Below the pieces are notes generated by a model. It did not search any database. It had not been told where the DNA came from and was given only the letters and a program-made list of their open reading frames with translations. Shown piece after piece: positions 483 through 2,990 of a stretch of 64,000 bases of DNA; the first letter of the stretch is position 1, and each line of letters starts with the position of its first letter. The translations under genes were made by a program, and so were the position numbers. This DNA is from Winogradskyella immobilis. Lineage in GTDB: Bacteria > Bacteroidota > Bacteroidia > Flavobacteriales > Flavobacteriaceae. The DNA is taken from NCBI RefSeq assembly GCF_021887715.1, contig NZ_JAIQXX010000001.1, positions 62,001 through 126,000 on the forward strand, written 5' to 3'.

Positions 483-580
483 AATGTCATTCAGAGTTGT
501 CAGACTGAGCTTGTCGAAGTTGAAACGAAGAATCTTATTTATGAATTATTAATAAAAGATTCCCACTTTCGTGGGAAGTA
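483..580 (+). repeat. Composite dispersed intergenic repeat upstream of ruvB (copy A)
   Basis: The segment contains GTCATTCAGAG, the core CTGAGCTTGTCGAAG (505-519), ACGAAGAATCT, and a hairpin TTCCCACTTTCGTGGGAA (about 560-577). The core resembles copies at 1686-1701, 2035-2050 (inverted) and 60524-60537. The outer parts resemble a simpler copy at 24652-24678. The hairpin ends a few bases before the ruvB ATG, so the element forms the whole ruvB leader. Confidence 0.75.
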
Positions 581-582
581 AC

Positions 583-1605
583 ATGAACGAAAACTTAGAT
601 CCTACAAACGAAAACTTTACACCCGAAGAGCTCGATGTCGAAAAGAAATTGAGACCTCTATCTTTTGAAGACTTTACAGGTCAAGATCAAGTATTAGAAA
701 ATTTGCAGATTTTCGTTCAGGCAGCTAACCTAAGAGGAGAAGCTTTAGATCATGCCTTATTCCACGGACCGCCAGGTTTAGGGAAAACCACCTTAGCACA
801 TATTTTAGCAAATGAATTAGATGTTGGTATAAAAGTAACATCAGGACCTGTTTTAGATAAGCCAGGAGATTTAGCAGGTTTACTTACTAATTTAGAAGAA
901 AGAGATGTTCTTTTTATAGATGAAATTCATCGTTTAAGTCCTATTGTAGAAGAATATTTGTATTCTGCAATGGAGGATTATAAAATTGATATCATGATTG
1001 AGTCTGGGCCAAATGCCAGAACAGTTCAGATTAATTTAAGCCCGTTCACTTTAGTTGGTGCCACTACACGTTCAGGATTGTTAACAGCACCAATGCGTGC
1101 ACGTTTTGGTATACAAAGTCGTTTACAATATTACAGTACAGAATTATTAACTACAATTGTGCAACGTAGCGCAGCCATACTTAATATGCCAATTACAATG
1201 GAAGCTGCTATTGAAATTGCTGGACGTAGCCGAGGAACACCTCGTATTGCTAATGCTTTGCTAAGACGTGTTAGAGACTTTGCACAGATTAAAGGCAATG
1301 GAAGTATTGATATTGCAATTGCAAAATTTGGGCTAGAAGCTCTACATGTAGATGCTCATGGTTTAGATGAAATGGACAATAAAATTTTAACTACAATTAT
1401 TGAAAAATTTAAAGGAGGTCCAGTAGGGATTTCAACAATAGCAACTGCAGTAAGTGAAAGTACAGAAACCATTGAAGAAGTTTACGAGCCTTTTTTAATA
1501 CAACAAGGTTTTATTATGCGTACGCCAAGAGGTAGAGAAGTTACCGAATTAGCTTATAAACATTTAGGAAAAATAAAAGGGCCAACACAAGGAGGATTGT
1601 TTTAA
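583..1605 (+). CDS. ruvB: Holliday junction branch migration helicase RuvB
   Basis: ATPase motor of the RuvAB complex, which drives branch migration of Holliday junctions in recombinational repair. The 340-aa protein has Walker A ([10 protein letters not shown], about residues 61-70), Walker B ([10 protein letters not shown], about 109-118), the sensor region [18 protein letters not shown] and a C-terminal winged helix ([16 protein letters not shown]). I chose the ATG at 583. The in-frame GTG at 571 lies inside the hairpin of the upstream repeat, and family members begin with MNEN-like sequence. ruvA lies separately at 6427. The leader is repeat-derived and has no evident Shine-Dalgarno site. 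Confidence 0.97.
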
Positions 1606-1678: not shown

Positions 1679-1703
1679 TGTCAGGCTGAGCGCAGTCGAA
1701 GCC
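1679..1703 (+). repeat. Left inverted repeat of the GIY-YIG cassette (copy C)
   Basis: TGTCAGGCTGAGCGCAGTCG followed by AAGCC. The core at 1686-1701 is the exact reverse complement of 2035-2050. It ends 17 bases before the GIY-YIG start codon. Confidence 0.85.
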
Positions 1704-1720
1704 TTAAACATTCAATATTT

Positions 1721-2032
1721 ATGTATTTATATTATGTCTACATTTTAAAATGTACAGATAATTCTTACTATACAGGAATTACAAATGATATATCCAAAAG
1801 ATTTATAGAGCATCAATCAGGTTATAAAAAGGATTCTTATACTTATAAGAGGAGACCATTAAAATTAGAGTTTTATCAAGAATTTAATGATGTCTTACAA
1901 GCCATATATTTTGAAAAGAAAATAAAAGGATGGACTAAAGCTAAAAAAAGAGCATTAATAAGTGGGGATTTTGATATGCTCCAAATATTATCAGAATGTA
2001 GAAATGTGACTCATTATAAATATAATAATTAG
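1721..2032 (+). CDS. GIY-YIG nuclease family protein (UPF0213/URI type)
   Basis: A small 103-aa single-domain nuclease. The GIY-YIG motif appears as YVY (residues 5-7) and YTG (17-19), followed by R27 and H31. The putative metal-binding glutamate is E65 in FEKKIKGW. All the usual catalytic positions are therefore present, and the length is normal for the family. The cellular role of this short class is not established; relatives include the catalytic domains of UvrC and of homing endonucleases. The gene lies between two inverted copies of a dispersed repeat, and its TAG stop overlaps the right-hand copy. This arrangement suggests a mobile or repeat-maintaining element rather than a repair operon with ruvB. 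Confidence 0.9.
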
Positions 2033-2056
2033 CACTTCGACTGCGCTCAGTGTGAC
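2031..2056 (-). repeat. Right inverted repeat of the GIY-YIG cassette (copy D)
   Basis: The reverse complement reads GTCACACTGAGCGCAGTCG followed by AAGTGCT. The 16-base core is identical to the left copy. It overlaps the GIY-YIG stop codon and ends 7 bases before the queG ATG, so it also forms the queG leader. Confidence 0.85.
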
Positions 2057-2063
2057 AATACAA

Positions 2064-2990
2064 ATGATAAACAATAAAATTAAATACACGGAATTCATTA
2101 AAACCGAAGCCAAACGCCTAGGCTTTTTGTCTTGTGGAATTAGCAAAGCCGAATTTTTAGAAGCAGAAGCACCAAGGTTAGAGCAATGGCTAAATAATAA
2201 TAGTCATGGAGAAATGCGTTATATGGAAAACCATTTTGATAAACGTTTAGATCCAACGTTGTTGGTTGAAGACTCTAAAAGTGTGGTATCTCTGTTATTA
2301 AATTATTACCCAAGCCAAGAGCAAACAGCTAATAGCTATAAGCTGTCAAAATACGCTTATGGTACAGATTATCATTTTGTAATTAAAGATAAACTAAAAG
2401 AACTCTTACACTGTATTCAAAACGAAATAGGGGAGGTTAACGGGCGTGCTTTTGTAGATTCTGCACCTGTTTTAGATAAAGCGTGGGCAGCAAAATCGGG
2501 TTTGGGCTGGATAGGTAAACACAGCAATTTATTAACTCAAAAAGTAGGTTCGTTTTATTTTATAGCGGAGCTTATTATCGATTTAGAATTAGATTACGAC
2601 ACTTCTGTAACAGATCATTGTGGGTCGTGTACAGCGTGCATAGATGCTTGCCCTACGGAAGCGATAACAGAACCTTATGTAGTAGATGGCAGTAAATGTA
2701 TTAGTTATTTTACTATAGAATTAAAAGACAATATTCCATCAGAATTTAAAGGTCAATTTAATGACTGGATGTTCGGTTGCGATATTTGCCAAGATGTCTG
2801 TCCATGGAACCGCTTTAGTCAATCACATAATGAACCTTTATTTAATCCGCATCCAGAATTACTTTCTATGACAAAAAAAGATTGGGAGGAAATTACTGAA
2901 GATACGTTTAAAAAAGTGTTTAAAAAATCTGCTGTAAAGCGTACAAAGTTCTCAGGATTAAAACGAAACGTTGATTTTCTAAAAGATTAA
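2064..2990 (+). CDS. queG: Epoxyqueuosine reductase QueG
   Basis: Cobalamin- and iron-sulfur-dependent enzyme of the last step of queuosine synthesis, reducing epoxyqueuosine to queuosine at the wobble base of tRNAs. The 308-aa protein has the catalytic-region motif [20 protein letters not shown] (Asp near 132). It also has two 4Fe-4S cluster motifs, [12 protein letters not shown] (Cys 186, 189, 192, 196) and [10 protein letters not shown] (Cys 239, 242, 246, with Cys 212 as the likely fourth ligand). The ATG at 2064 is preferred to an in-frame GTG at 2052, which lies inside the repeat. A convergent gene ends 5 bases downstream. Confidence 0.96.

What the first reader, a model, noticed from the sequence alone, without database searches (positions are those of the whole stretch)
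1679..2056. GIY-YIG nuclease gene enclosed by inverted copies of a dispersed repeat: a possible REP/RAYT-like mobile unit
Seen: a 103-aa GIY-YIG ORF with all the usual catalytic positions fills the space between CTGAGCGCAGTCGAAG (1686-1701) and its exact reverse complement (2035-2050). The stop codon overlaps the right repeat, and reading past it gives HFDCAQCD from the repeat itself. Known: RAYT transposases are single small nucleases beside REP palindromes, and GIY-YIG domains power homing endonucleases. Inference: the nuclease may spread or maintain the repeat family in Bacteroidota genomes. It sits in an otherwise conserved ruvB-queG interval. My memory is that short GIY-YIG genes in this phylum are often followed by such repeat-derived codons.
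Basis: partly seen in the sequence, partly recalled or inferred. Interest (0 to 1): 0.78.

Follow-up and report, generated by a model that had tools for sequence, protein, structure and literature searches.

The report
GIY-YIG genes framed by REP hairpins
A tiny DNA-cutting enzyme gene sits between two mirror-image copies of a short hairpin repeat, and the same pairing recurs in other bacteria, which suggests that this enzyme family is the missing partner of a widespread class of genomic repeats.

Summary
A 103-aa GIY-YIG ORF (1721-2032) lies between GTCA-tagged hairpin repeats at 1680-1703 (+) and 2033-2056 (-); the stop codon abuts the right hairpin. The pattern is general. Flanking inverted repeats (score >=16) occur at 52 of 86 short GIY-YIG genes of the genus versus 12 of 201 control ORFs, and at 56 of 77 close relatives from other taxa versus 18 of 207 (seeds already known to be flanked). 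UvrC and DnaQ-like genes with the same domain score 2 of 20 each. Each GIY-YIG subfamily carries its own repeat type (0 of 1000 within-genome permutations reach the observed correlation). In Proteobacteria the arms are mostly CGTC-tagged REPs, which a 2013 survey said 'apparently lack a dedicated transposase'. Orthologous intergenic sites show the whole unit, a gene-less repeat pair, or nothing. I conclude that these are REPtron-like units with a GIY-YIG nuclease in place of a RAYT. The association is strong; that the nuclease cuts or moves the repeat is inferred, not shown. A sister class of short GIY-YIG genes sits at tRNA genes (13 of 88 versus 3 of 387 controls). No paper I saw reports the REP link.

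The parts
1721..2032 (+). short GIY-YIG nuclease gene, 103 aa, stop codon TAG at 2030-2032
1680..1703 (+). left REP: tag GTCA 1680-1683, stem 1684-1687/1700-1703 (GGCT/AGCC), core GAGCGCAGTCGA
   Evidence: (stem covariation over 37 copies)
2033..2056 (-). right REP, inverted: tag GTCA (rc, 2053-2056), stem 2033-2036/2049-2052 (CACT/AGTG), same core; begins directly after the stop codon
1612..1639 (+). degenerate third REP shortly after ruvB (ATCAGACTGAGTCTTTCGACTAGTCTCA)
   Evidence: read; pairing by eye
499..520 (+). further REP copy of the TTG-core type upstream of ruvB (GTCAGACTGAGCTTGTCGAAGT)
583..1605 (+). ruvB, left neighbour
   Evidence: (ORF from 571; ATG at 583 read), identity by reading
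2064..2990 (+). queG, right neighbour
   Evidence: ORF from 2052; ATG at 2064 read; used as query; identity by reading

Best explanation
The feature is an autonomous repeat unit: two outward-tagged hairpin repeats (REPs) enclosing the gene of a small GIY-YIG nuclease that is specific for that repeat type. It has the layout of a REPtron, with a GIY-YIG enzyme in the place of the RAYT. SHOWN here: tight inverted framing, subfamily-specific pairing of nuclease and repeat, stem covariation, dispersed single and paired gene-less copies, presence/absence at orthologous sites. INFERRED: the nuclease recognises the tagged hairpin, probably extruded or single-stranded during replication, nicks at its base as the structurally similar Slx1 does at branched DNA, and the cut promotes copying of the REP pair, with or without the gene, into new intergenic sites by repair. 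Gene-less pairs are then its non-autonomous derivatives, as REPINs are for RAYTs.
For: Inverted-repeat framing at score >=16: 52/86 short GIY-YIG genes of the genus vs 12/201 far control ORFs, 5/68 size-matched far ORFs, 7.5% for swapped flanks; 56/77 vs 18/207 in other taxa, and at >=20 47/77 vs 1/207; 11 of 16 fetched of 34 plasmid-collection records. Same domain, other genes: UvrC 2/20, 0 at >=20; DnaQ-like 2/20, 0 at >=20. Specificity: protein identity vs REP similarity rho 0.58; within-genome permutations mean 0.17, max 0.36, 0/1000 reach it; nearest REP belongs to the same protein family in 40/52 vs 15.6 expected. Structure: the third and fourth stem positions are paired in 31/37 copies each vs 12.4 and 16.1 expected, four pair types each. 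Orientation: upstream arm tag forward 24, reverse 3, undecided 25 in the genus. Gene-less pairs and empty sites at orthologous places. In the genome of L173 70 REP matches give 21 close pairs, 20 with tags outward, starts 50-65 bp apart. No Y1 transposase over cut-off in the own genome, nor in 13 of 21 genus genomes, own included.
Against: No cutting, binding or movement was observed. 34 of 86 genus genes, 21 of 77 other genes and 5 of 16 plasmid-collection loci score below 16. Genomes G001, G013 and G032 have 45, 27 and 46 matches of the window's REP pattern (reversed control 4, 4 and 6) without the matching nuclease subfamily as I assigned it by hand, and cognate presence predicts copy number only moderately (medians 36 vs 7.5, p 0.0036, not corrected for kinship). 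Several units are syntenic across species, so movement is rare. The window's own repeats fold weakly (-2.9 and -2.5 kcal/mol as DNA). No target-site duplication was defined. The 80 loci were the best of at least 590, and all six seed proteins came from loci already seen with inverted repeats, so the 56/77 is not an unbiased rate. Swapped flanks in that set reach 16 in 16% and 20 in 8%, since relatives share repeats.
Confidence: 0.68

Rival explanations
1. Free-standing homing endonuclease: the REP or REP pair is only the landing site. The GIY-YIG gene homes into existing REP pairs by cutting gene-less ones and being copied in by repair; the REPs themselves are spread by something else.
Against: REPs are more numerous than the genes (36 matches against 8 short GIY-YIG genes of all subfamilies in the own genome) and occur where no Y1 mover was found; arms of about 25 bp are short for homing by homology; left and right ends stay distinct.
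Confidence: 0.2
2. REPs are moved by Y1/HUH transposases (RAYT or IS200) and only happen to lie near GIY-YIG genes.
For: RAYTs are held to move GTAG REPs (PMC3733652); Y1 genes over cut-off exist in 8 of 21 genus genomes.
Against: The Y1 genes of the genus carry other hairpins (GTGCCTTTAGGTAC, CCCTGAA-GGGC and the like): 8 of 12 tested have inverted repeats, none of the shared GTCA-tagged type by eye; the own genome has no Y1 over cut-off; Di Nocera 2013 found no Y1 gene flanked by CGTC REPs.
Confidence: 0.03
3. Passive accumulation or regulation: REPs serve as terminators or mRNA stabilisers of the small gene, or both collect in tolerant intergenic sites.
For: The right hairpin follows the stop codon at once; units sit between operon genes.
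Against: Does not explain why repeat type follows nuclease subfamily inside one genome, why control ORFs and UvrC/DnaQ-like genes lack it, or the dozens of dispersed copies.
Confidence: 0.06
4. Chance or annotation artefact.
For: Low-scoring AT-rich matches occur in controls.
Against: Fisher p 9e-23 and 5e-26 in two sets.
Confidence: 0.01

Closest known systems
REPtron / RAYT (TnpA-REP) with REP and REPIN, GTAG superfamily
   Same: single small nuclease gene framed by inverted tagged hairpins; dispersed gene-less copies, many as outward-tagged pairs; nuclease and repeat co-diverge
   Different: enzyme is GIY-YIG, not HUH Y1; tag is GTC(A)/CGTC, not GTAG; cleavage and recombination in vitro are reported for TnpA-REP (PMC8266576, passages), not shown here
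CGTC-tagged REPs (Di Nocera et al. 2013, PMC3733652), including dRS3 and Rickettsia RPE-4/6
   Same: the arms around GIY-YIG genes in Rhizobiaceae, Azospirillum, Sphingomonadaceae and a Neisseria record are mostly CGTC-tagged palindromes
   Different: the paper found no gene partner; the window's own repeat has the TGTC(A) tag but a short variable stem and a 12-nt core instead of the 8-9 bp stem
Free-standing GIY-YIG homing endonucleases (phage T4 Seg type, recalled)
   Same: intronless small GIY-YIG gene between host genes, presence/absence among relatives
   Different: framed by dispersed repeats; no evidence of conversion of a cognate empty allele
UPF0213 proteins (1zg2, 1ywl)
   Same: closest solved relatives by sequence (E 4e-14) and by Foldseek rank
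   Different: structural-genomics targets by their titles; no repeat link known to me
Slx1
   Different: eukaryotic, in complex with Slx4; not repeat-linked

Membership tests
RAYT/REPtron | HUH (Y1) transposase domain PF01797 | tested here: not met
   protein matches PF01541 only; no Y1 over cut-off in the genome
RAYT/REPtron | gene flanked by inverted REPs that are dispersed in the genome | tested here: met
RAYT/REPtron | GTAG tag | tested here: not met
   tag is GTCA
RAYT/REPtron | gene-less inverted REP pairs (REPIN) | tested here: met
RAYT/REPtron | enzyme cleaves its REP | not testable with these tools
   needs purified protein
CGTC REP | CGTC tag (often TGTC or CCTC) at one end | tested here: met
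   window repeats read TGTCA; many arms read CGTC, TGTC or CCTC
CGTC REP | 8-9 bp stem with complementary AT in the first two positions, 4-5 nt loop, CCA-like tail | tested here: not met
   window repeat has about 4 bp stem plus core; repeats of families B/E and of alpha-proteobacteria do look so by eye
GIY-YIG nuclease | PF01541 domain over cut-off with conserved active-site positions | tested here: met
free-standing homing endonuclease | cuts the empty allele and is copied into it | not testable with these tools
   only presence/absence seen
UPF0213 | sequence relation to 1zg2/1ywl | tested here: met
   E 4e-14 and 7.5e-11; but no NCBIfam model hit

The most novel reading that the evidence does not exclude
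Short GIY-YIG nucleases, from Bacteroidota and Proteobacteria to Armatimonadota and Omnitrophota, form an apparently unrecognised class of minimal mobile units. One branch is the dedicated enzyme of the CGTC/GTC-tagged REP superfamily and moves REP pairs; a sister branch uses tRNA genes as its site, leaving a partial tRNA copy, often split by a palindrome, and in several cases borrowing the tRNA 5' end for its stop codon. This would be GIY-YIG-driven spread of bacterial repeats, without a transposase of any known class.
Probability: 0.5. Interest if true: 0.95.

Novelty: new variant of a known kind. Interest (0 to 1): 0.86.

Why it matters
CGTC-tagged REPs were described in 2013 in five phyla without a known mover (PMC3733652), and I found no later paper that names one. 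A cognate enzyme would explain how they spread, make it testable with a roughly 100-residue protein and an oligonucleotide, and suggest a role for many proteins now named only 'GIY-YIG nuclease family protein' or not at all (1009 relatives of the window's protein alone). It would also show that the REPtron design arose with two unrelated nucleases.

Tried and rejected
RAYT/IS200 as mover: rejected for this genome. Rfam on 1600-2100: no match. NCBIfam: no match. Repeat-derived tails as a general feature: 1 of 120 listed proteins by a motif scan, and three with N-terminal codons such as LSAVE or MSAVE among the 16 longer ones that I read. L101 vs L118 looked like an inverted unit but is a same-strand unit on the other side of the thiolase gene. 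S. meliloti for empty sites: 4 of 132 records cover 80% of the query, the other listed ones 30% or less in pieces; no empty site defined. A generic GTC-hairpin finder misses most of the short-stemmed genus repeats (67 of 86 genes none on either side) but, where it sees both sides, outward pairs lead (9 of 9 genus, 17 of 30 global). VIA list: the GIY-YIG entries lead; rows from rank 16 are other folds. Counting faults: one search had unmasked GIY duplicates among its controls and was replaced; one search found no DnaQ-like frame because of a wrong length window, redone; the bit scores printed were a wrong column and are not used; one gene is counted twice (L341/L369) and L340 is the own genome's L015 again. 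Rows dropped: L026 (duplicate), L017 and L098 (short flank); L193, L223, L242 (short flank); matches in frames of 200 aa or more; four fragmentary or stop-broken genus matches were not fetched, and that list was cut at its weak end. In one search the upstream gene was not recognised for 4 of 21 kynurenine loci; for ruvB-queG 8 of 19 genus loci stayed unresolved. Of 34 plasmid-collection records 16 were fetched.

Literature: full-text searches (all ten allowed). GIY-YIG with 'repetitive extragenic palindromic' gives 0 papers; repeat strings and HFDCAQ give 0. The other listings were seen only in part (for example 20 of 803, 20 of 41, 25 of 70, 40 of 278); no title or abstract start that I saw links GIY-YIG to REPs. 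Read: PMC3733652 (abstract, passages, sections 6, 14, 16; Figure 2 not held); PMC8266576, PMC6006769, PMC12306157, PMC10969869 (term finds only). Most subscription journals and all bioRxiv preprints are missing from that library.

Full report
WHAT IS THERE. The window carries a 103-aa GIY-YIG ORF at 1721-2032 between ruvB and queG. It is enclosed by two inverted repeats whose 16-base core matches exactly at 1686-1701 and 2035-2050 and, within three mismatches, nowhere else in the 64 kb. Read with its flanks the left repeat is GTCA-GGCT-GAGCGCAGTCGA-AGCC (1680-1703) and the right one, on the other strand, GTCA-CACT-GAGCGCAGTCGA-AGTG (2033-2056). The stop codon ends at 2032 and the right hairpin begins at 2033. 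A degenerate third copy follows ruvB (1612-1639, by eye).

THE REPEAT IS A HAIRPIN FAMILY. In the own genome (3.0 Mb, 82 contigs) CTGAGC-N2..8-TCGAAG occurs 36 times against 1 for the reversed pattern. Among 37 copies of GAGC-N3/4-TCGA in the own-genome loci I held, the two stem positions just outside the searched core pair in 31 of 37 copies each, 12.4 and 16.1 expected from base composition, each with four different Watson-Crick pairs. This is compensatory change: the pairing matters, not the letters. Pairing fades beyond the fourth position (14 of 37 at the fifth, 16.8 expected). The two window copies fold weakly on their own (-2.9 and -2.5 kcal/mol as DNA).

ENRICHMENT IN THE GENUS. Twenty-one genomes of the genus hold 2 to 26 PF01541 matches each. 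I held 88 distinct short GIY-YIG genes and scored the best local match between 250 bp upstream and the reverse complement of 250 bp downstream. Score 16 or more: 52 of 86 GIY-YIG genes, 12 of 201 control ORFs at least 600 bp from any GIY-YIG gene in the loci held, 13 of 112 nearer ORFs, 5 of 68 size-matched far ORFs, 7.5% of 1000 swapped flank pairs; Fisher p 9e-23. Two housekeeping types with the same domain serve as a control: UvrC 2 of 20 and DnaQ-like 2 of 20 at 16, none at 20. In the own genome 5 of 36 copies of the window repeat lie within 300 bp of the 8 short GIY-YIG genes, 0.08 expected, and 3 of 8 genes have one.

OUTSIDE THE GENUS. tblastn of a family-B protein against plasmid records hit 34, mostly alpha-proteobacterial replicons. 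I fetched 16; 11 score 16 or more, 5 do not (Photobacterium, Rhizobium tumorigenes, Aeromonas, Sinorhizobium K101, Sphingomonas). The arms are mostly CGTC-, TGTC- or CCTC-tagged palindromes, e.g. CGTCATCCCAGGGCTTGACCCTGGGATCCA in Rhizobium. In Azospirillum the unit lies between sufB and sufC. A scan of species genomes gave at least 590 relatives, of which the best 80 were kept: 56 of 77 usable loci score 16 or more versus 18 of 207 control ORFs (p 5e-26); at 20 or more 47 of 77 versus 1 of 207; swapped flanks reach 16 in 16% and 20 in 8%. Bias to state: all six seed proteins came from loci already seen with inverted repeats, and the 80 are the closest relatives, mostly Alphaproteobacteria. Positive examples include a Deltaproteobacterium, two Armatimonadota, one of two Omnitrophota, two Bacteroidetes MAGs, a Thiotrichaceae MAG and an archaeal-named MAG of uncertain binning; the Parcubacteria, Uhrbacteria, Berkelbacteria, Ignavibacteriales and both Thiobacillus loci are below 16. 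A REP pattern is present 8 to 70 times in each of seven alpha-type genomes holding such loci, reversed control 0 in all seven.

SPECIFIC PAIRING. Over 1233 between-genome pairs of framed genus genes below 90% identity, protein identity and repeat similarity correlate at rho 0.58; when repeats are permuted among GIY-YIG genes of the same genome the mean is 0.17, the maximum 0.36, and none of 1000 reaches the observed value. The gene with the most similar repeat is of the same protein family (45% identity or more) in 40 of 52 cases, 15.6 expected under permutation, at most 25. So the repeat follows the enzyme more than the genome. Synteny of some units adds to this signal. Examples: CSDxSYYTG proteins with GTCA..GAGCGCAGTCGA; LTYTGVTNN proteins with GTCTGGTCGAGCGCAGTCGAGACC; NGTLYIGVTNDLERRM proteins with TGTCATTCCTGCGNAGGCAGGAATC; GFTGGIDDRM proteins with TGTCATGCTGAACTTGTTTCAGCATCT.

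LAYOUT. Where the tag could be read it mostly points outward: upstream arm forward 24, reverse 3, undecided 25 in the genus; forward 25, reverse 12, undecided 19 elsewhere. The downstream arm lies within 20 bp of the last sense codon in 30 of 52 and 29 of 56. Gene-less pairs have the same order: in the genome of L173 (a Rhizobium) 20 of 21 neighbouring pairs have tags outside, starts 50-65 bp apart. Di Nocera et al. note that CGTC elements are predominantly HH dimers (PMC3733652, section 6).

PRESENCE AND ABSENCE. Between paaI and paaJ (20 loci) two genomes carry the full unit (385-388 bp), one carries both repeats without the gene (89 bp), one a single repeat (54 bp), four have 0-8 bp, and twelve have other content. 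Between AMSDH and the SDR gene of the kynurenine operon (21 loci) five carry the unit, four a gene-less repeat pair (76-116 bp, by reading), four could not be anchored, and eight hold other sequence (gene names by reading). ruvB-queG: this genome alone of 11 resolved has the unit; G004 has 40 bp with another REP-like palindrome, G007 has none. Several units are syntenic between species, while others with up to 90% identical protein lie in contexts without detectable similarity. So units persist vertically and seem to relocate now and then; I saw no target duplication, and which state came first at each site is not settled.

RIVAL MOVERS. The own genome has no Y1 transposase over cut-off; 13 of 21 genus genomes, own included, have none. 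Of 12 Y1 genes tested, 8 carry inverted repeats, which shows that the test finds known kinds of hairpin-ended genes, but by eye with other hairpins. Against a simple one-to-one rule: G001, G013 and G032 have 45, 27 and 46 matches of the window repeat (reversed control 4, 4, 6) without the nuclease subfamily that I assigned to it, and copy number relates to cognate presence only moderately (medians 36 in 7 genomes, 7.5 in 14).

NOVELTY. [quoted passage not shown] sections 6, 14, 16). In ten searches of the open-access library I saw nothing that links GIY-YIG proteins to REPs (long listings seen in part). Closed-access work and preprints are not covered.

A SISTER CLASS. 13 of 88 short genus GIY-YIG genes lie within 150 bp of a tRNA versus 3 of 387 control ORFs (p 5e-8): 12 of the 36 without a repeat score of 16, 1 of the 52 with it; all 13 in the same orientation. 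In the clearest cases (L142, L138, L135, L015, L126) an upstream partial tRNA 5' copy, split by a palindrome, precedes the gene, and the intact tRNA's 5' end supplies the stop codon. In 30 loci from 60 Bacteroidia genomes searched with this class, 18 have a tRNA or tmRNA within 150 bp, all on the same strand; without the twice-counted gene and the own genome it is 16 of 28. This deserves its own study.

VERDICT. The mechanism is untested.

Noticed in passing
L015, L019, L093, L119, L126, L135, L138, L142, L143; L340-L369: A second class of short GIY-YIG genes sits at tRNA/tmRNA genes, same strand, often with a partial tRNA copy on the other side, split by a palindrome, and in several the stop codon lies inside the intact tRNA's 5' end (13 of 88 genus genes vs 3 of 387 controls; 16 of 28 distinct further loci in Bacteroidia).
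   Followed up: partly
L145 (G011:C1:538857-546977), L116, L126, L084: Tandem arrays of short GIY-YIG units: six matches 378-381 bp apart in G011, repeated units also in G015, G012 and G002.
   Followed up: no
L070-L074 (G003, G016, G017, G013, G012): Pieces of the queG 3' end (25-60 codons, 73-87% identical) occur about 0.7-9 kb from queG in five genomes, as if DNA had inserted at the gene end with duplication.
   Followed up: no
L109 (G017:C32): A REP-framed GIY-YIG unit sits between hsdR-like and hsdM-like genes of a type I restriction operon (names by reading).
   Followed up: no
L149 (Planktothrix plasmid p1): A repeat-flanked GIY-YIG gene lies between an MmeI-type restriction enzyme and DISARM drmA.
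   Followed up: no
L276 (G004, kynurenine operon interval): Two REP-like ends enclose a different, non-GIY sequence of about 340 bp: possibly a REP pair with other cargo.
   Followed up: no
L327, L328, L329, L330, L331, L333, L334, L338: Y1 (IS200-like) genes of the genus have their own hairpin ends (such as GTGCCTTTAGGTAC or CCCTGAA-GGGC), distinct by eye from the GIY-YIG repeats.
   Followed up: partly
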